64,000 nucleotides of DNA, from positions 38,806-102,805 of IMG/VR virus record IMGVR_UViG_3300025073_000032. One strand, written 5' to 3'. Position numbers and translations under genes: made by a program. Shown here one piece after another: positions 15,492 to 63,798 of this stretch (within the stretch, counting starts at the first letter, position 1; each line of letters starts with the position of its first letter). The DNA is from a virus. The notes under the pieces were generated by a model. That model was not told the origin of the DNA. It did no database searches and worked only from the letters and a program-made list of their open reading frames with translations.

Positions 15492-15749
15492 TCAGTTGTC
15501 CTCTTCATAGAGGATTTCGTATGAATTATCCTCGGTGTTTACTGCTCTCTGATATATCGGAACTTTCCTCAGTGCCAACTGGAAGCACTCCAGGGTTTTA
15601 CAGCCCTTCACACATTTTGGTATCTCATTAGTTTTACAAATTAAGCAAGGACTCTTAAGCGTTCTATTAAATAATCTCCTATGCTTAGCTACATCCTGCT
15701 GAATCTTCTCCTCAGAATCGATAACAGGTGCTTTGGCTTTTCTTCGCAT
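15492..15749 (-). CDS. Cysteine-containing 85-residue protein
   Basis: Starts MRRKAKAPVIDSEEKIQQDV. Five cysteines lie between residues 35 and 56 (C-L-I-C, K-C, G-C, E-C), consistent with a zinc site. The C-terminus is acidic. It is two bases upstream of the flap-nuclease stop region and probably co-transcribed. Confidence 0.6.
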   Translation of the reverse strand: MRRKAKAPVIDSEEKIQQDVAKHRRLFNRTLKSPCLICKTNEIPKCVKGCKTLECFQLALRKVPIYQRAVNTEDNSYEILYEEDN

Positions 15750-20435: not shown

Positions 20436-21794
20436 TTATATGGAAAAATCTTTCAGATCAGCCCAACTTTTGTCACTAAGCTTCAAATCAGCTGCCAGAG
20501 GTACTCCCAAGTCCCAGTATATCAATGGGTTTTGAGGATTAGACATAACAGAAGTAGCCATCTCTGCTATTATATTAACTTCAGACTTATGAACACAGAA
20601 CATAATGGAGTCATGAACTGTAGCAATAATTTTTGACTTAAGCTTGTACTTATTTATTAAATCAATGAGGTTTATAATAGCACAAATTGTATACTGTCCT
20701 GCTGTACCTTGAATGGGCATATTCAAAGCTTGTCGTAATGCCTCATACTTTGTAAACTTCTGTGAAGAAGTTACGCCCAACAACCTTCGATAATTACCGA
20801 ACATAGTACTCACATACTTGTGTTCTGTAACAAAATCCTCTACATAATCCAAGAATACCTTAACCCCTGGCATGCTATTAAAATAGTTCTTCTTAAAGTT
20901 CTTAGCCTCCTTCTCAGTCACGCCTAAAGCCTCAGCCAAAGCCTTATCACCTTCACCGTAGATGATTCCAAAGTTAATTGTCTTTGCTGCTTTTCTCCAC
21001 TTGCTGTCCTTGTCTACAATGATCCCCGGCTCAGCTATGTCAGCCATCTTCTGACCAGTAGCTAAGTGAATATCCTGACCATTCCTAAAAATTTCTAACA
21101 TTACTTCGTCTTGACAATAAGCCGCCAAGATGCGAAGCTCCATTTGAGAATAGTCTGCCTCCATTAACAGATAGTCACTGTCAAATGGTACATACATATT
21201 CTTAATGTTAAGCATAGGATCAAAATCAAACCCTATGTCAGCAGCTTTTATGTTCTTTGGAATTTGCTGTAGATTAGGATCAAAGCAAACAAGACGACCT
21301 GTAACTGTTATCGGAAGATAAGTACTATGTATTCTCCCATCTAAACAGATATGCCCATGCACAGGTTTAATAAACATCTTGTACAGTGTGGCATACTTCT
21401 TATGCTGATTGATAAGAGATACTATCTCATGTACATCCTTAAGCTTTGCAATAGTTTTCTTGCCAGTGCTATATCTCTTACCACTATCTGTCAGCTCCAA
21501 CCCTTCTGTTGACAACCCCATCTCAGTAAAGAACAGTTCATGTATCTGATCCCCTGAATTAAGATTAAACTTCTTCTCAAGCTTTTTCTCTACTGACAGT
21601 ACTTCAGGATAACCACGAACTGCATCTTCCAACTGCGCTAGTTTCTTCTCGTAACCCTTCTCCATCATAGACAGAGTAGCTATATCAATCTGAAACCCTG
21701 ACTTTTCTATACCTTGTATGGCATAGATAGCCGGAATAAACAGATGGTCATGCACCTCCTGAAAGCTATTCCTTGAAGGGAAAACATCACTCAT
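20436..21794 (-). CDS. DNA polymerase family A, polymerase domain only
   Basis: 452 residues covering just the palm, fingers and thumb of Pol I. Motif A is D-Y-S-Q-M-E-L-R-I-L-A near 212; motif B is R-K-A-A-K-T-I-N-F-G-I-I-Y-G near 270, with the Phe that normally excludes dideoxynucleotides; motif C is T-V-H-D-S near 390. The 3'-5' exonuclease domain is missing here and is instead encoded by 22761-23945, fused to a UDG-like domain. The start falls right at the usual exonuclease/polymerase boundary. Confidence 0.93.
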   Translation of the reverse strand: MSDVFPSRNSFQEVHDHLFIPAIYAIQGIEKSGFQIDIATLSMMEKGYEKKLAQLEDAVRGYPEVLSVEKKLEKKFNLNSGDQIHELFFTEMGLSTEGLELTDSGKRYSTGKKTIAKLKDVHEIVSLINQHKKYATLYKMFIKPVHGHICLDGRIHSTYLPITVTGRLVCFDPNLQQIPKNIKAADIGFDFDPMLNIKNMYVPFDSDYLLMEADYSQMELRILAAYCQDEVMLEIFRNGQDIHLATGQKMADIAEPGIIVDKDSKWRKAAKTINFGIIYGEGDKALAEALGVTEKEAKNFKKNYFNSMPGVKVFLDYVEDFVTEHKYVSTMFGNYRRLLGVTSSQKFTKYEALRQALNMPIQGTAGQYTICAIINLIDLINKYKLKSKIIATVHDSIMFCVHKSEVNIIAEMATSVMSNPQNPLIYWDLGVPLAADLKLSDKSWADLKDFSI

Positions 21795-22327
21795 AACTGT
21801 ACCTGAATCAACACCTCAAACCAGGAATGTACACGAACAAGACTAGGCTCCTGTACCTGTCTATTCCAAGGACGATCCATAAGAATTCTCTTCCCTGGAA
21901 AATTAATAAGATTCTTGGGATAGTCATCTATCAGCACATCACCACGTACCATATGTTTTTGACCTGTACAGATGACTCTATCTCGTCCTACAAACGGAAC
22001 ATGTTTATCTATCCATTCAAGCTTCTCAAAATAAGCAAAGCGTGAATCTGTAGGAGATTTTGTAACAAAATAAATATCATGCTTATCCAGATATAGTTGC
22101 ATGAGTGCATCAACAGACTCTAAGTAAGGCTCACAATTAAGAAACAAACCTTCTACCTTGAGATAGTCGAATATCTTATTACCACACTCTGGCTTGACAC
22201 ACTTTGACCAATTGAAATCATTTATATCTTCTACAGTAAGACAGTCATTATAGTCTCTGTTATACATCTCAAGCCACGGCTTTTCCAACTGAGCCACTAC
22301 ACCATCCATGTCACATAGAATAACCAT
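21791..22327 (-). CDS. Deoxy-(pyrimidine) 5'-nucleotidase-like HAD phosphatase
   Basis: Motif I of the HAD superfamily is C-D-M-D-G-V-V-A at 5-12; motif II is V-T-K-S-P-T near 97 and motif III/IV is L-I-D-D-Y-P-K-N near 150. This matches the 5'(3')-deoxyribonucleotidase (NT5C) family, 178 residues. It dephosphorylates nucleotides and may remove unwanted dNMPs. Overlaps both neighbours by 1-4 bases, lying between the two halves of the polymerase. Confidence 0.8.
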   Translation of the reverse strand: MVILCDMDGVVAQLEKPWLEMYNRDYNDCLTVEDINDFNWSKCVKPECGNKIFDYLKVEGLFLNCEPYLESVDALMQLYLDKHDIYFVTKSPTDSRFAYFEKLEWIDKHVPFVGRDRVICTGQKHMVRGDVLIDDYPKNLINFPGKRILMDRPWNRQVQEPSLVRVHSWFEVLIQVQL

Positions 22328-22764
22328 CAGTTACATCCTTTCCTACAATGATTTTTACGAAAGGTTTCTGTACAATAACAGCGAGACTTCTCTCTGAGCC
22401 TCTGCAACTCTGCTAGCACCTCCTCCCTTGTATTAAACAACTGTACATCTTTATGCCATAGCAGTATATTCTCTCTCCGTCCCAGCACCAAGATCGGTAT
22501 GCCTAAGCCTAAAGCTACTCCAGCCTCAACAAACTTGCCGCCAGCATAATACTCATCATCACTTATAAGCACCATAGCATCTGCTTTCTTAACCTCTTCC
22601 GTGTCTCTTACAGCTATAGCCTCTCGCTCCTCTTCAGTGTAGTCAGCTGTACGCTTGAATACCTTGTACACCCAGGTAGAAACAATGTCAAAACCATTGT
22701 TGTCAAGAGTACTTGCCATCATCTGAGCTTTGTCTTGCTTGCATGCTGCAACATATATCTTCAT
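22327..22764 (-). CDS. Nucleoside 2-deoxyribosyltransferase-like protein
   Basis: Starts MKIYVAACKQDKAQMMASTL, the Rossmann-like opening of the family, with T-W-V-Y near 30, K-A-D-A-M-V-L-I near 60 and G-G-K-F-V-E-A-G-V-A-L near 76, which holds the usual catalytic Glu. The family cleaves or exchanges bases on deoxynucleosides. The last 20 residues carry four cysteines (C-Y-C, C-R-K-G-C), unusual for the family. 145 residues. Confidence 0.7.
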   Translation of the reverse strand: MKIYVAACKQDKAQMMASTLDNNGFDIVSTWVYKVFKRTADYTEEEREAIAVRDTEEVKKADAMVLISDDEYYAGGKFVEAGVALGLGIPILVLGRRENILLWHKDVQLFNTREEVLAELQRLREKSRCYCTETFRKNHCRKGCN

Positions 22765-23945
22765 ACTGTTTCCTCTCTATTAGATAATAGTGGACTAATT
22801 TTATGATCGATCCTGATAGATGCATCTGTATCTGCCGCAGCATACGGTATAAGCACCTTCCACGGTATATTCCGATACGAACCGCCACGCTCAGGATCAC
22901 AGTCCTTGTGCTGTGCTTTGTACCTTTCCAACCCTTCCCAGTAACTACCCATTTCTGGACAAAACTGCCACACTAAATAGTCAAGAGCATGAGTACCTGA
23001 CAATTCATTTAATAAATAAGACTTCATCATGATATCAGAAACTATGTTATTCAACCTGATTCCTTCGGCTATCTCAAACCACATCAAATCGAACTTTGCA
23101 TTCTGTAGTATCTTTCTAATATCAGACTCACATATAAGCTTCATCACTGTTTTAGCGTACTCCAGCATCTTCCCTGTAAATACCATCTCTTTGTTATAAA
23201 TAGGGATGACGTATGACTCATACTCCTTGAAAGAAAACTGACAACAAACAATCTGAGCACCTTCCTTGAACGGATTAAGGCAAGAATCCTCTGTATCGAC
23301 TGCTACCTCTTCCTGATCGGAGGCATAGTCTAATAGATCATCCAACTTCTTTTTAGTGTCACAGAAGACGTAGTTGACTGGCTGTTCTTCAGTAGGCATG
23401 GTACCTGTAAACTCTTTATAGAGCGTCTCCAGGTCTTTCAGAAAGGGATTCAGATAAGTGTCATCCTTTACGACCACTTCAGGGTTCAATGTAGGAACTA
23501 CTGGAATACCCTCATAATCAAAGATTCGACCTCGCTTAGAGGTTATGCCTGTCTCCCCTAATACAGCCTTGAGAGCCACACCACCTAATAAAAGAATGAT
23601 CTTTGGTTTGTATACTTCTATCTCTGCTAATAGATAAGGTTTGCAGGTTTTGACTTCTTTATCGGTAGGCTCTCGGTTGAGAGTTTTGTTCCACTTCCTT
23701 TGTGTTGGCCTACATTTCACGACATAAGTATAAGCTATTTTATTAGCACTAAATCCATTACCCACCAAAGCCAGCCGCAACAGTTCTCCAGCCTCTCCAA
23801 CCAGGACACCCCCACACTTATCATCAGATTCATGTGGGCAATCCCCAATCACCAACACATCTGGATTTGGCCTACCTTCTATTCTGATTCTTGGGGTTTC
23901 GCACTGAGTATGAAGAGAACAACTTTCTTCAAATTCACATTGCAT
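22761..23945 (-). CDS. Uracil-DNA-glycosylase-like domain fused to 3'-5' exonuclease domain
   Basis: Residues 1-200 resemble family 4-type UDG: a Cys-rich start, V-I-G-D-C-P, G-G-V-L-V-G-E-A-G-E-L-L, V-V-K-C-R-P and L-L-G-G-V-A-L near 115. Residues 205-394 form a DnaQ-like proofreading domain: V-D-T-E-D near 215, Q-N-A-K-F-D near 290 and Y-A-A-A-D-T-D near 370. It is the natural N-terminal part of a UDG-exo-pol polymerase as known in SPO1-like phages, here separated from the polymerase by two nucleotide-enzyme genes. SD AAGGA is nine bases upstream. Confidence 0.85.
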   Translation of the reverse strand: MQCEFEESCSLHTQCETPRIRIEGRPNPDVLVIGDCPHESDDKCGGVLVGEAGELLRLALVGNGFSANKIAYTYVVKCRPTQRKWNKTLNREPTDKEVKTCKPYLLAEIEVYKPKIILLLGGVALKAVLGETGITSKRGRIFDYEGIPVVPTLNPEVVVKDDTYLNPFLKDLETLYKEFTGTMPTEEQPVNYVFCDTKKKLDDLLDYASDQEEVAVDTEDSCLNPFKEGAQIVCCQFSFKEYESYVIPIYNKEMVFTGKMLEYAKTVMKLICESDIRKILQNAKFDLMWFEIAEGIRLNNIVSDIMMKSYLLNELSGTHALDYLVWQFCPEMGSYWEGLERYKAQHKDCDPERGGSYRNIPWKVLIPYAAADTDASIRIDHKISPLLSNREETV

Positions 23946-26219: not shown

Positions 26220-27080
26220 TCAGTTCCCTGTTTTGATTTTCTTCATCTCTTCAGCCAAAGTCCAGAGAGCTTTGTTCAGCCGCACGTCTTCGGTAATGGA
26301 ATTGACCTGACGAGTGCTCTGCCGACGAACCCTGTGAGTTTCTTCATTGAGCTTGTTATAATGCAAGCCGCCTTTGACCAAGTTTTCCTGAATGATATTA
26401 TAAGTACCCCAAAGCGTGTTCTGCTGCTCATAATCGGCTCTGCGTCGAACCTGGAGCACCTGTCCCGGCTTTACAGGAATTTCATCAAGCTGTTGCTTCC
26501 ACTCTTCCAAACCCTCAGCCGGATGTTTAACGAATTTGACCATACGAGAGGCATCAGCCATCACAAGCCGTTCTTCTTCGGTCAAGTCGATATTACGCAT
26601 CTCCTGAACACTGTTGGCAAGCAGAGGAACATCCTGAATGATTGAAAAGGCACCTTCCAGTACTTCCTGTACCACGTTTTTGCTATGCATTACGGATACC
26701 GGAGGTACGAGGTTATCGCCAACAACCAAGCCATTCTCACATACGAAACTGAACAGACCGGCCATCATTTTGTACCGGGACAAACCATCATGAGAGTTTA
26801 CTATTATAATTTCAGGAGCTACAAGGTTGGAACCTGCCTGGATCATTGACAGGTTAGGGTGACGGAAACGGAGCATGTGCTTCGTGTAATCCCTGCGTCC
26901 CTCGTCCCTGGTTCTCGTCTGAGAAGCCTTGAATGGCTGAAACCCTTCGGCCAGAAGAGCGTCAAGCACTTGCACTGTAGGTATGAAGCCATAGCGGTCA
27001 CTGCGGCTTTCGTGAGGCTCAAGAGCGAAAACTGAAGGAGCTACCCTGCGGATTTCTTCCATGCTCAGTATGCGTTCCAT
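26220..27080 (-). CDS. DUF932 (DUF945) phage/plasmid-like protein
   Basis: 286 residues with the usual landmarks of the family: F-I-P-T-V-Q-V-L-D-A-L, F-R-H-P-N, P-E-I-I-I-V-N-S-H-D-G near 90 and the F-V-C-E-N-G-L-V core near 115. These proteins are common on phages and plasmids; their role is not established, with links to DNA metabolism by context. It has its own promoter (27126-27153) and terminator (26180-26210), so it is a single-gene unit and may be strongly expressed. Confidence 0.88.
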   Translation of the reverse strand: MERILSMEEIRRVAPSVFALEPHESRSDRYGFIPTVQVLDALLAEGFQPFKASQTRTRDEGRRDYTKHMLRFRHPNLSMIQAGSNLVAPEIIIVNSHDGLSRYKMMAGLFSFVCENGLVVGDNLVPPVSVMHSKNVVQEVLEGAFSIIQDVPLLANSVQEMRNIDLTEEERLVMADASRMVKFVKHPAEGLEEWKQQLDEIPVKPGQVLQVRRRADYEQQNTLWGTYNIIQENLVKGGLHYNKLNEETHRVRRQSTRQVNSITEDVRLNKALWTLAEEMKKIKTGN

Positions 27081-27125: not shown

Positions 27126-27153
27126 ATTATACACAACCCTCAAACCATTGCAA
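27126..27153 (-). promoter_or_regulatory. Sigma70-like promoter P4 for the DUF932 gene
   Basis: Minus-strand TTGCAA (27148-27153) and TATAAT (27126-27131) with a 16-base spacer. The start codon is 46 bases downstream of the -10. Bases around the -35 (GCTTGCAAT) are identical to those of P3 200 bases upstream. Confidence 0.8.
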
Positions 27154-27168
27154 GCATATTTCTATTAT

Positions 27169-27213
27169 ATTTTTCGGTGGGAGCATAAGAGTATCGAACT
27201 CTTATTTTTCGGT
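27169..27213 (-). repeat. 10-bp direct repeat flanking the T-arm/acceptor segment
   Basis: ATTTTTCGGT (plus strand) occurs at 27169-27178 and 27204-27213, bracketing the 25 bases that encode the T-arm and 3' acceptor strand of the tRNA-like RNA. This may be the scar of an insertion or duplication that separated the tRNA halves. Confidence 0.6.
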
Positions 27214-27321
27214 AACTTAATGGCACTCCGATGTTTAGGGTAGTAGCCTTACCTCTGTCTCTCCTGTGCCTTAATTAAGTTATGCTACCCGAAAAGTCTT
27301 AACCTGTTAAACGAATGCTCC
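27179..27321 (-). tRNA. tRNA-like RNA with a ~70-nt insertion in the anticodon arm
   Basis: The 143-nt RNA starts GGAGCAT and ends ATGCTCC, a perfect 7-bp acceptor stem. Bases 8-9 are UC. The D-arm is GUUU-AACAGGUUA-AGAC, with A14, G18 and G19; the T-arm is AAGAG-UUCGAUA-CUCUU. Elbow contacts U8-A14, A15-U48, G10-C25 and U54-A58 are all possible. No CCA is encoded. Where a 17-nt anticodon arm should be, UUUUCGG pairs with CCGAAAA, but about 70 extra bases intervene. These form TAACTTAAT/ATTAAGTTA and GGCAC/GTGCC helices, a six-base bulge GTAGCA and a 39-nt apical loop containing GCUAC, which can pair with the bulge. One reading of the loop is GUAGCAU (anticodon AGC), but identity is not certain. 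It is read from promoter P3 with a 12-19 base leader. Confidence 0.6.
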
Positions 27322-27339: not shown

Positions 27340-27367
27340 ATTATAAAACCTTTGATGGATATTGCAA
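27340..27367 (-). promoter_or_regulatory. Sigma70-like promoter P3 for the tRNA-like RNA
   Basis: Minus-strand TTGCAA (27362-27367) and TATAAT (27340-27345), spacer 16 bases. The 15 bases TATAATAGAATAAAG at the -10 are identical to P2. It lies just after the stop of the UvsW-type helicase gene and 19 bases before the first base of the tRNA-like RNA. Confidence 0.8.
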
Positions 27368-27373
27368 GCCAAA

Positions 27374-28786
27374 TTATGCTAATTTTACCTCGAAACCTTC
27401 ATTTTTCATCAGACCTATTCTAATACGAGAGTGCTCAAGTAAATACCAGTTACCAACATCCATAAAGTCATATACGACTAGCCTCATAGACTCACTAGCT
27501 CTTAGCCCCCTACCGATCCGCTGGAGCAGCCTAATACCAGACCTACCTCCTGCTGCCAAAATCAAAACTCCTATGTTAGCTATATCCACACCCTCGTCAA
27601 GAATAGTAGAGGCTATCAAAGTCTTTAAATTTCCCTGTCTGAACGCTTCAAGCCTGTCCCGGCGCTGCCTACTATCCAGAGAACCATGTACATAATCAGC
27701 TCCTGGTATCAATTGCCGTAAATTGTGAATGTGCTGAATTTCTTTAGTAATAATTAAAACGGATTCACCTAGGCTTGCATGTCTGCTTGCTATCTCTCTA
27801 ATAGCTTCGTTACGCTCTTTACTGTTTACGATACCTCTTGAATAAGCAATATCATACTTAGATGAAAGTATATTAGGAGTATCAACTCTGATAATACGAC
27901 AGGTGGGTACAGAAGAAACCCCTCGCTGAATTAACTCATCATTGGATATGGTAAACAGCACATCCCCAAAGTATCCTATAAGCTGCATGTTTGTAACTTC
28001 ATCATTCATCAGAGGAGTACCTGAAAACGCCCCTCTATATATAGCATTACTCTTTTTCAGTATAGTTTTAGCTCTATCATCAGACACATTATGACATTCA
28101 TCGAAACAAAGAACAGGAGCATTAAGCAAAGACTTGAACTCATCCTTAACCCTCCAAGTCTTCTTCTTTTTGATCCTACCTTTTGTATCTTTACTTACAG
28201 CTGGCTCTACAACTGACTGATACATCACCACAGTAATAGACTCAGGTTTAACAATACCATCTCCTACTACTCCTACTGGTACCTGAAGTCTATTGCTTAA
28301 TCTCTCAGCTGTTTGATGCATAAGAACTTGTCTATGCAACATAATGATTGCATCCATGTTAAGCTTACGCAAAAAATCAGCCATTGCTTCAGTTTTTCCT
28401 GCGTTCGTAGCAGCCGCTATAATACCTCGTCTATACTTCAAAAGAGCAGCTACAGCATCAACTTGATAATCCCTTGGTATGACCCCATGCAATGATTCAC
28501 ATATAGGCTCACCTAAGACAGGAATAGCATACATATACTCTACTACAGGCATCTTACCAGTAAACTCTATTATCTTATCGATAACCCTGGTCAATAGGCC
28601 AGAAGGAAACTTACCTGTAAGACGACTGAACATATGAGACTTGCCATCCCAAAAATGACGTTTGTATGAATCTACAAACTCACGACCTATCACATCATAA
28701 GCAAAAGCTTCATCTAATGCTAACAGTAAGTCTGGAACATCAGTAGTAACTTTTGAGTTAGCTATATCTACTAAAATTCGTACCAT
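27374..28786 (-). CDS. UvsW-type SF2 DNA helicase
   Basis: 470 residues. Q-like start R-D-Y-Q-V-D-A-V near 105, Walker A A-T-N-A-G-K-T-E near 125, motif II F-D-E-C-H-N near 225, motif III S-G-T-P-L near 255, motif V near 395 and motif VI Q-R-I-G-R-G-L-R near 440. T4 UvsW unwinds R-loops and branched DNA and switches origin use to recombination-dependent replication. Surrounding genes agree. Confidence 0.9.
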   Translation of the reverse strand: MVRILVDIANSKVTTDVPDLLLALDEAFAYDVIGREFVDSYKRHFWDGKSHMFSRLTGKFPSGLLTRVIDKIIEFTGKMPVVEYMYAIPVLGEPICESLHGVIPRDYQVDAVAALLKYRRGIIAAATNAGKTEAMADFLRKLNMDAIIMLHRQVLMHQTAERLSNRLQVPVGVVGDGIVKPESITVVMYQSVVEPAVSKDTKGRIKKKKTWRVKDEFKSLLNAPVLCFDECHNVSDDRAKTILKKSNAIYRGAFSGTPLMNDEVTNMQLIGYFGDVLFTISNDELIQRGVSSVPTCRIIRVDTPNILSSKYDIAYSRGIVNSKERNEAIREIASRHASLGESVLIITKEIQHIHNLRQLIPGADYVHGSLDSRQRRDRLEAFRQGNLKTLIASTILDEGVDIANIGVLILAAGGRSGIRLLQRIGRGLRASESMRLVVYDFMDVGNWYLLEHSRIRIGLMKNEGFEVKLA

Positions 28787-62821: not shown

Positions 62822-63148
62822 TTATACTCTTCCATATAATCTTTCGACGTTATACTGATACTCAGCTGTTCTTGTTCTAAGCCTACCGTCATCGAAAGTA
62901 TACGTGACAGTTAAAGCTTTAGGCTCCAACTCAAGACGATTGTTCCTGAGAGCATTAACGGAAGGAGCTATTTCTATGTTTACAATAGAAGAAAGAGGAG
63001 ATATTTCTGTGTCTGCTTGTAAACGTACACCAGAGTTGATATCCGTAATACGGTAAGTGGCAGTAACCGGAGCTACTGCCACACCATTGTTATCAAGGAA
63101 CTCAATCTCTACTGTACACCCTGAATCTTGAGGTACAGTCTGAGCCAT
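62822..63148 (-). CDS. Ig-like structural protein, 108 residues
   Basis: Starts MAQTVPQDSGCTVEIEFLDN; alternating strands (A-T-Y-R-I-T-D-I-N-S-G, V-T-Y-T-F-D-D-G-R-L). Small beta-sandwich proteins like this are frequent beside large fibre proteins. One-base overlap with the homing endonuclease gene. Confidence 0.6.
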   Translation of the reverse strand: MAQTVPQDSGCTVEIEFLDNNGVAVAPVTATYRITDINSGVRLQADTEISPLSSIVNIEIAPSVNALRNNRLELEPKALTVTYTFDDGRLRTRTAEYQYNVERLYGRV

Positions 63149-63798
63149 TACGTTACCCTCGCTTCAACCAAATTGGTTCTTCGTGTTCTACCAGCTAGTT
63201 TACCAGCTTCTACCCTTGATCTATTCTTCTTCAGTGATCTGAGCCAGTAACCTATAGTGGCATATTTGATGTTTAACTTCGTACTTACTTCCTCTTGAGA
63301 CAAGCCTGATTCATAAAGTCTGACTGCCTCTTTTACATCTTCTCTATCTGATAGAGATTTACATGCATTACCGGGGATCAAATTGGTTTTAACACTCGAT
63401 TCCTTTTTCAATCTCTGTAACTCGCTCCTTACCCAAAGTCTTTTTTCTCTAATGTGAGGCATAACCTCCTGTCGAGGGTGGCCTATTGGAAATTGTAGGG
63501 CTATTTCTACTTGAGCTTTCTTTACTATTACAAAATCTTTGATAGTGTTCAAAAAATTCAGAGCTGTTTCAGAGTAAATAGCCCAAGTATAAGAAGCTTT
63601 GCCTGCTTTTTCATAATAATGCTTAGGGAAGATGATGTTACCACCAAATCTTTCCCTAAGCATCTCCAGAACAGGTAGAGTGTTTTGCGTGACGGTTACG
63701 GAGAGTACCATGTATTTGTTCTTCTCAGAGTGACTAACTCCTACATAACCTTCCCCATCAAAGAAACCCGCAAAATAAGCTATTAGAATATCTTTCAT
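63148..63798 (-). CDS. LAGLIDADG homing endonuclease with C-terminal HTH
   Basis: 216 residues. One LAGLIDADG helix is A-Y-F-A-G-F-F-D-G-E-G-Y-V-G-V (8-22); the fold follows with T-V-T-Q-N and V-L-E-M-L-R-E-R-F-G-G. Residues about 150-185 (L-Y-E-S-G-L-S-Q-E-E-V-S-T-K-L-N) form a helix-turn-helix for extra DNA contact. It is free-standing between two virion genes. A CTATTAG site lies at its first codons. Such genes invade phages by cutting alleles that lack them. Confidence 0.85.
   Translation of the reverse strand: MKDILIAYFAGFFDGEGYVGVSHSEKNKYMVLSVTVTQNTLPVLEMLRERFGGNIIFPKHYYEKAGKASYTWAIYSETALNFLNTIKDFVIVKKAQVEIALQFPIGHPRQEVMPHIREKRLWVRSELQRLKKESSVKTNLIPGNACKSLSDREDVKEAVRLYESGLSQEEVSTKLNIKYATIGYWLRSLKKNRSRVEAGKLAGRTRRTNLVEARVT

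What the first reader, a model, noticed from the sequence alone, without database searches (positions are those of the whole stretch)
27179..27321. tRNA body with a ~70-nt pseudoknot-capable insertion in the anticodon arm
Acceptor stem, D-arm and T-arm are all intact, with every standard elbow contact available, but the anticodon arm is replaced by a longer structure: 7 bp, a six-base bulge, 9 bp, a 3-base bulge, 5 bp and a 39-nt loop whose GCUAC can pair with GUAGC of the bulge. Known bacterial tRNA introns are group I and far longer than 70 nt. It could be a tiny or degenerate intron, a tRNA-shaped decoy for host anticodon nucleases, or a new tRNA-like regulator. It has its own strong promoter, so it is probably made in quantity.
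Basis: partly seen in the sequence, partly recalled or inferred. Interest (0 to 1): 0.78.

Follow-up and report, generated by a model that had tools for sequence, protein, structure and literature searches.

The report
Phage tRNA-shaped RNA, structured anticodon insert
Two distantly related, uncultured bacterial viruses carry, at the same place in their genomes, an RNA gene that is built like a transfer RNA except that its anticodon loop has been replaced by a folded ~70-letter domain, so it cannot read codons and probably serves as a stable tRNA-shaped scaffold or decoy.

Summary
On the - strand, 27321-27179 folds as a complete tRNA body (7-bp acceptor, 4-bp D-arm, 5-bp T-arm with UUCGAUA) whose anticodon loop is replaced by a 69-70-nt structured domain. 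ARAGORN and Rfam miss it. A strict tRNA-body scan finds it alone in the window, against 1 hit in 10,997 simulated windows. A second phage (G001, 103.5 kb; helicase 59% identical) has the same RNA in the same helicase/DUF932 gap. A covariance model made from the window RNA alone finds it (E 3e-7). All 30 shared base pairs form in both RNAs, 13 through changes on both sides, and the 5bp-bulge-9bp arm recurs in 0-2 of 20,000 shuffles. With the arm removed, ARAGORN calls both bodies tRNAs (0/200 shuffles). The insert sits where anticodon position 37/38 would be, but U33, the anticodon, G3:U70 and encoded CCA are not kept. No bulge-helix-bulge motif, splicing endonuclease, RtcB, TROVE protein or tmRNA match was found. 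Best reading: a non-decoding, tRNA-derived phage RNA that uses the tRNA body for processing and stability and shows a structured arm, most likely as a protein-binding decoy or regulator. Function is inferred; expression is untested.

The parts
27179..27321 (-). tRNA-shaped RNA, 143 nt (5' end 27321, discriminator C73 at 27179)
   Evidence: fold and strict scan; homologue found by single-sequence covariance model
27315..27321 (-). acceptor stem 5' strand GGAGCAU
   Evidence: 7/7 pairs; two double compensatory changes in G001
27180..27186 (-). acceptor stem 3' strand AUGCUCC; followed by C73 and ACC, no encoded CCA
27296..27312 (-). D-arm GUUU[AACAGGUUA]AGAC
   Evidence: 4/4 pairs; U13-A22 becomes C13-G22 in G001
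27187..27203 (-). T-arm AAGAG[UUCGAUA]CUCUU; loop identical in G001
   Evidence: 5/5 pairs, three double changes
27289..27295 (-). anticodon-stem 5' strand UUUUCGG
   Evidence: pairs with 27206-27212; equivalent 5-bp stem CUCAG/CUGAG in G001
27206..27212 (-). anticodon-stem 3' strand CCGAAAA
   Evidence: pairs with 27289-27295
27283..27288 (-). 6-nt bulge GUAGCA, aligned to tRNA-Ala loop CUUGCA (positions 32-37)
   Evidence: R2 alignment to a phage tRNA-Ala
27213..27282 (-). 69-70-nt structured insertion at the 37/38 position
27274..27282 (-). 9-bp helix 5' strand UAACUUAAU
   Evidence: 9/9 pairs in both phages, four double changes
27213..27221 (-). 9-bp helix 3' strand AUUAAGUUA
27222..27270 (-). 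apical part: 5-bp helix GGCAC (27266-27270) with GUGCC (27222-27226), and 39-nt loop (27227-27265)
   Evidence: folds here; not conserved in the same register in G001
27340..27367 (-). promoter-like TTGCAA-16-TATAAT upstream of the RNA
   Evidence: equivalent in G001
27126..27153 (-). second promoter-like TTGCAA-16-TATAAT between the RNA and the DUF932 gene
   Evidence: equivalent in G001
27374..28786 (-). upstream gene: superfamily II DNA helicase (470 aa)
   Evidence: PHROG 16, Pfam ResIII/Helicase_C
26220..27080 (-). downstream gene: DUF932 protein (286 aa)
   Evidence: PF06067 E 7.7e-43

Best explanation
It is a non-decoding RNA derived from a phage-type tRNA. The host's tRNA enzymes probably treat it as a tRNA at both ends (RNase P at the 5' end; tRNA 3'-processing, since no terminator is predicted) and the tRNA body protects it. 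In place of the anticodon loop it shows a long two-helix arm. The finished RNA probably acts in trans by binding a protein that recognises tRNA bodies, either to occupy a tRNA-targeting host factor as a decoy or to bring a partner to the arm. Shown: tRNA body, conserved architecture, conserved position and flanking promoter-like sites, loss of decoding features. Inferred: transcription, processing, trans action and the protein partner.
For: tRNA-body scan: only site in the window, 1 hit in 10,997 simulated windows. Same RNA in the same helicase/DUF932 gap of a phage with a 59%-identical helicase. A model from the window RNA alone finds it, 39.3 bits, E 3.4e-7, and also a phage tRNA-Ala, 38.2 bits, then other phage tRNAs. 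25/25 body-plus-9-bp pairs canonical in both, 10 double changes, 1/500 shuffles; with the anticodon stem 30/30 and 13. Topology in 0/20,000 and 2/20,000 shuffles. Arm removed: ARAGORN calls tRNA-Ala(agc) and tRNA-Arg(ccg), 0/200 shuffles each. G3:U70 absent and C73 present in both, no encoded CCA, different anticodons, no U33 in G001. Promoter-like sites on both sides in both genomes, so the downstream gene does not need the RNA as its leader. No terminator predicted after the RNA in the window.
Against: No transcript data. Only two distinct members are known. In G001 the D-loop GG is GUG, which would weaken the elbow. The free-energy optimum extends the T-hairpin at the expense of two acceptor pairs. 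The arm's sequence is not conserved, so no binding motif can be named. No obvious partner protein is encoded next to the RNA; the conserved neighbours are only the helicase and DUF932.
Confidence: 0.5

Rival explanations
1. A real tRNA gene interrupted by a ~70-nt intron at the 37/38 position, spliced by an unknown bacterial or phage activity to give a decoding tRNA.
For: The insertion falls at the canonical 37/38 intron position; 5' side U33-A34-G35-C36-A37 matches a tRNA-Ala loop; exact removal gives an ARAGORN tRNA call for both; bulge GUAGC can pair with insert GCUAC, as anticodons pair with introns in eukaryotes (the latter from general knowledge).
Against: No bulge-helix-bulge (all bulges on one strand); no group I match; no PF01974 or RtcB in either phage; predicted anticodons AGC and CCG differ, G001 has C33; G3:U70 missing for Ala; pseudoknot not above chance.
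Confidence: 0.12
2. A cis-acting leader of the DUF932/replication operon: the tRNA shape is a processing site or a regulatory 5' UTR.
For: Lies 98 nt upstream of DUF932 in the same orientation in the window and likewise upstream in G001; no terminator predicted between RNA and gene.
Against: A second promoter-like site lies between RNA and gene in both phages, so the gene can be transcribed without it; tRNA-level conservation exceeds what a simple processing hairpin needs.
Confidence: 0.18
3. A bacterial Y-RNA-like (YrlA) partner of a Ro60/TROVE protein supplied by the host.
For: Known bacterial Y RNAs carry a tRNA-like domain and are associated with Ro60 (PMC7790460).
Against: No TROVE (PF05731) in either phage; no match to any Rfam Y RNA family up to E=10.
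Confidence: 0.07
4. A degenerate tRNA gene or chance fold without function.
For: Decoding features are lost; only two members; no expression data.
Against: 13 double compensatory changes and kept topology in a divergent phage point to selection on the structure.
Confidence: 0.06

Closest known systems
Phage-encoded tRNAs (including tRNAs that counter tRNA-cleaving defences; PMC11555353, PMC13096335, PMC10264068)
   Same: Same body, small phage RNA gene; models of this RNA recognise phage tRNAs
   Different: No anticodon loop, so no decoding; extra 70-nt structured domain; C73, no encoded CCA
Bacterial Y RNAs (YrlA) with tRNA-like domain
   Same: Non-decoding RNA that mimics tRNA and carries an additional stem
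   Different: No TROVE/Ro60 gene, no Rfam match; RNA ends lie at the acceptor as in a tRNA (that YrlA is arranged otherwise is from memory)
tmRNA
   Same: tRNA-like ends with the anticodon arm replaced by a long helix
   Different: Has a true D-stem, lacks G3:U70, far shorter; no tmRNA call or Rfam match
Intron-containing pre-tRNAs (group I in bacteria; bulge-helix-bulge in archaea and eukaryotes)
   Same: Insertion at anticodon-loop position 37/38
   Different: Far too short for group I, no bulge-helix-bulge, no splicing enzyme in the phages, U33 and anticodon not kept
Engineered 'tRNA scaffold' RNAs (PMC3753655)
   Same: Acceptor, D- and T-arms kept, anticodon stem-loop replaced by a structured RNA payload
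   Different: That is a laboratory construct; this is natural

Membership tests
tRNA (decoding) | acceptor, D- and T-arm cloverleaf body | tested here: met
tRNA (decoding) | 7-nt anticodon loop with U33 | tested here: not met
   replaced by ~76-nt domain; G001 has C33 even after removal of the insert
tRNA (decoding) | encoded or added CCA | tested here: inconclusive
   not encoded in either RNA; addition needs experiment
Group I intron in tRNA | group I catalytic core | tested here: not met
   no Rfam match, insert only ~70 nt
Archaeal/eukaryal tRNA intron | bulge-helix-bulge motif and splicing endonuclease | tested here: not met
   both bulges on the 5' strand; PF01974 absent in both phages
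tmRNA | tRNA-like domain recognised by ARAGORN/Rfam, G3:U70 for alanylation, tag reading frame | tested here: not met
   no call or match; no G3:U70 in either RNA; tag frame judged by eye only
Bacterial Y RNA | encoded with a Ro60/TROVE protein | tested here: not met
   PF05731 absent in both phages; a host-encoded Ro60 cannot be excluded
Bacterial Y RNA | binding to Ro60 | not testable with these tools
   needs biochemistry
tRNA-mimicking non-decoding RNA | tRNA body conserved by compensatory change without decoding features | tested here: met

The most novel reading that the evidence does not exclude
A previously undescribed class of natural 'tRNA-scaffold' RNAs in phages: a tRNA turned into a carrier that uses the host's tRNA processing to make and protect a structured effector domain, used against tRNA-reading host factors.
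Probability: 0.4. Interest if true: 0.88.

Novelty: new variant of a known kind. Interest (0 to 1): 0.72.

Why it matters
It would be a natural counterpart of the engineered tRNA scaffold: a phage keeping a full tRNA body under selection while giving up decoding. That makes it a candidate for a new counter-defence RNA at a time when several defences are known to cut tRNAs, and standard tRNA and Rfam scans are blind to it, so more such RNAs may be hidden in phage genomes. The paired genomes and the covariance model give an immediate way to look for them.

Tried and rejected
Chance: rejected. tmRNA, group I, bulge-helix-bulge, Y RNA: tested, not met. Pseudoknot GUAGC/GCUAC: present, but p about 0.09 in the window and 0.75 in G001, so not claimed. 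Antisense RNA: no exact complement of 12 nt or more to the insert elsewhere in the phage. Neighbour DUF932: its relatives in other viral contigs do not keep the gene order, and no homologue rang in those loci. The first pattern scan used too short a gap and was void; repeats found only tandem ordinary tRNAs or the two known members among chance matches. No member found among 392 genomes of one bacterial phylum or eight pattern hits in bacterial genomes, but those searches lacked a positive control. Isotype of origin: the window RNA is closest to tRNA-Ala, the G001 body to tRNA-Cys/Trp, so not settled.

Full report
What is there. The window is 38806-102805 of a 102.8-kb IMG/VR virus record, from a tailed phage with SPO1-like replication and sheath genes at ~35% identity. 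Between a superfamily II helicase gene (27374-28786) and a DUF932 gene (26220-27080), both on the - strand, lies a 143-nt sequence that folds as a tRNA body with a replaced anticodon arm. ARAGORN and Rfam do not see it, and no ordinary tRNA was found in the rest of the record.

More than chance. Requiring a perfect acceptor, T-stem and D-stem plus the tRNA loop landmarks gives this one site in the window and one site in 10,997 simulated windows. The fold is 3.9 standard deviations better than shuffles.

A second member. The only other IMG/VR copy found at first was an identical 6.6-kb contig. A scan with the tail sheath brought up a 103.5-kb relative, G001, with an 86%-identical sheath and a 59%-identical helicase. 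Its helicase/DUF932 gap holds a 141-nt RNA (G001:C1:71470-71610, L131:15471-15611) with the same architecture: 7-bp acceptor, UC, 4-bp D-arm, 5-bp anticodon stem, 7-nt bulge, 9-10-bp helix, apical domain, T-arm with the same UUCGAUA loop, and C73. Its unconstrained fold gives this architecture without guidance, although its overall z-score is only -1.6. A covariance model from the window RNA alone finds it at E 3.4e-7, so the homology is not a product of fitting.

Covariation. Over acceptor, D-stem, 9-bp helix and T-stem, 25 of 25 pairs are canonical in both sequences and 10 changed on both sides; 1 of 500 shuffles does as well, and every slid register collapses. The anticodon stem (UUUCG/CGAAA versus CUCAG/CUGAG) adds five pairs, three of them double changes, in a register shifted by one column. 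Dinucleotide shuffles of the insert region reproduce the 5bp-bulge-9bp topology in 0 and 2 of 20,000. The apical loop and the bulge sequence are not conserved, and the proposed pseudoknot is within chance.

tRNA ancestry. Models made only from these RNAs pick out genuine phage tRNAs: tRNA-Ala(UGC) at 38-41 bits, then others. The alignment puts the insert where positions 37/38 of the anticodon loop meet (GGGUAGCA-[70]-CCG against GGCUUGCA-[1]-CCG). With the insert removed, ARAGORN calls tRNA-Ala(agc) for the window and tRNA-Arg(ccg) for G001, and none of 200 shuffles each. BLAST of the G001 body hits annotated phage tRNA-Cys and tRNA-Trp at weak E-values. The isotype of origin is therefore uncertain.

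Why it does not decode. The two 'anticodons' differ, G001 lacks U33, neither has the alanine G3:U70 pair, both have C73, and CCA is not encoded. An intron that restores a decoding tRNA should have kept these.

Expression and processing. In each genome the promoter-like sequence TTGCAN16TATWAT was found only twice, once on each side of the RNA. The first can drive the RNA and the second the DUF932 operon. No terminator is predicted after the RNA in the window. Maturation by tRNA enzymes is the simplest way to its ends, as for the laboratory tRNA scaffold, in which an RNA placed in the anticodon arm is processed and stabilised (PMC3753655). This step is inferred.

Function. Defences that cut tRNAs are known, and phage tRNAs can counter them or act as decoys or supplements (PMC11555353, PMC13096335). 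The Salmonella YrlA tRNA-like domain has been suggested to inhibit an anticodon nuclease competitively (PMC7790460). A tRNA body without an anticodon loop would suit proteins that read the elbow, acceptor or variable region. This is a proposal, not a result. A leader role for DUF932 and an unspecified protein-recruiting role remain possible.

Limits. Two members, metagenomic contigs, unknown hosts, no transcript data, and no positive control in the bacterial-genome searches.

Noticed in passing
window 20436-21794 and 22761-23945: The family A DNA polymerase is split into two genes (PHROG 17 positions 478-829 in 22761-23945 and 840-1235 in 20436-21794) separated by a nucleoside 2-deoxyribosyltransferase-like gene (22327-22764) and a 178-aa gene.
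   Followed up: no
window 63148-63798: Free-standing LAGLIDADG homing endonuclease gene with a likely C-terminal helix-turn-helix.
   Followed up: no
window 27203-27213 and 27168-27178: An 11-nt direct repeat ACCGAAAAATA (- strand): once covering the 3' anticodon-stem strand, once just after the RNA's 3' end, so the 5' strand could pair with either.
   Followed up: partly
L131:15390-15450 and 15612-15680 (G001): A ~60-nt near-identical promoter-like module flanks the RNA on both sides in G001.
   Followed up: partly
window 27234-27248; G001:C1:64900-64914: 15 nt of the RNA's apical loop (GGCUACUACCCUAAA) are identical to the start of the endopeptidase-like gene in G001 (BLAST E 0.05); probably chance.
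   Followed up: no
window 26220-27080; L013-L071: The DUF932 protein has relatives in many unrelated phages, including GAP32-like jumbo phages, without shared gene order.
   Followed up: partly
L161, L162 (G012, G013): Distant sheath relatives with matching tRNA arrays (nine tRNAs in 3 kb), including the tRNA-Ala(UGC) that scores best against this RNA.
   Followed up: partly
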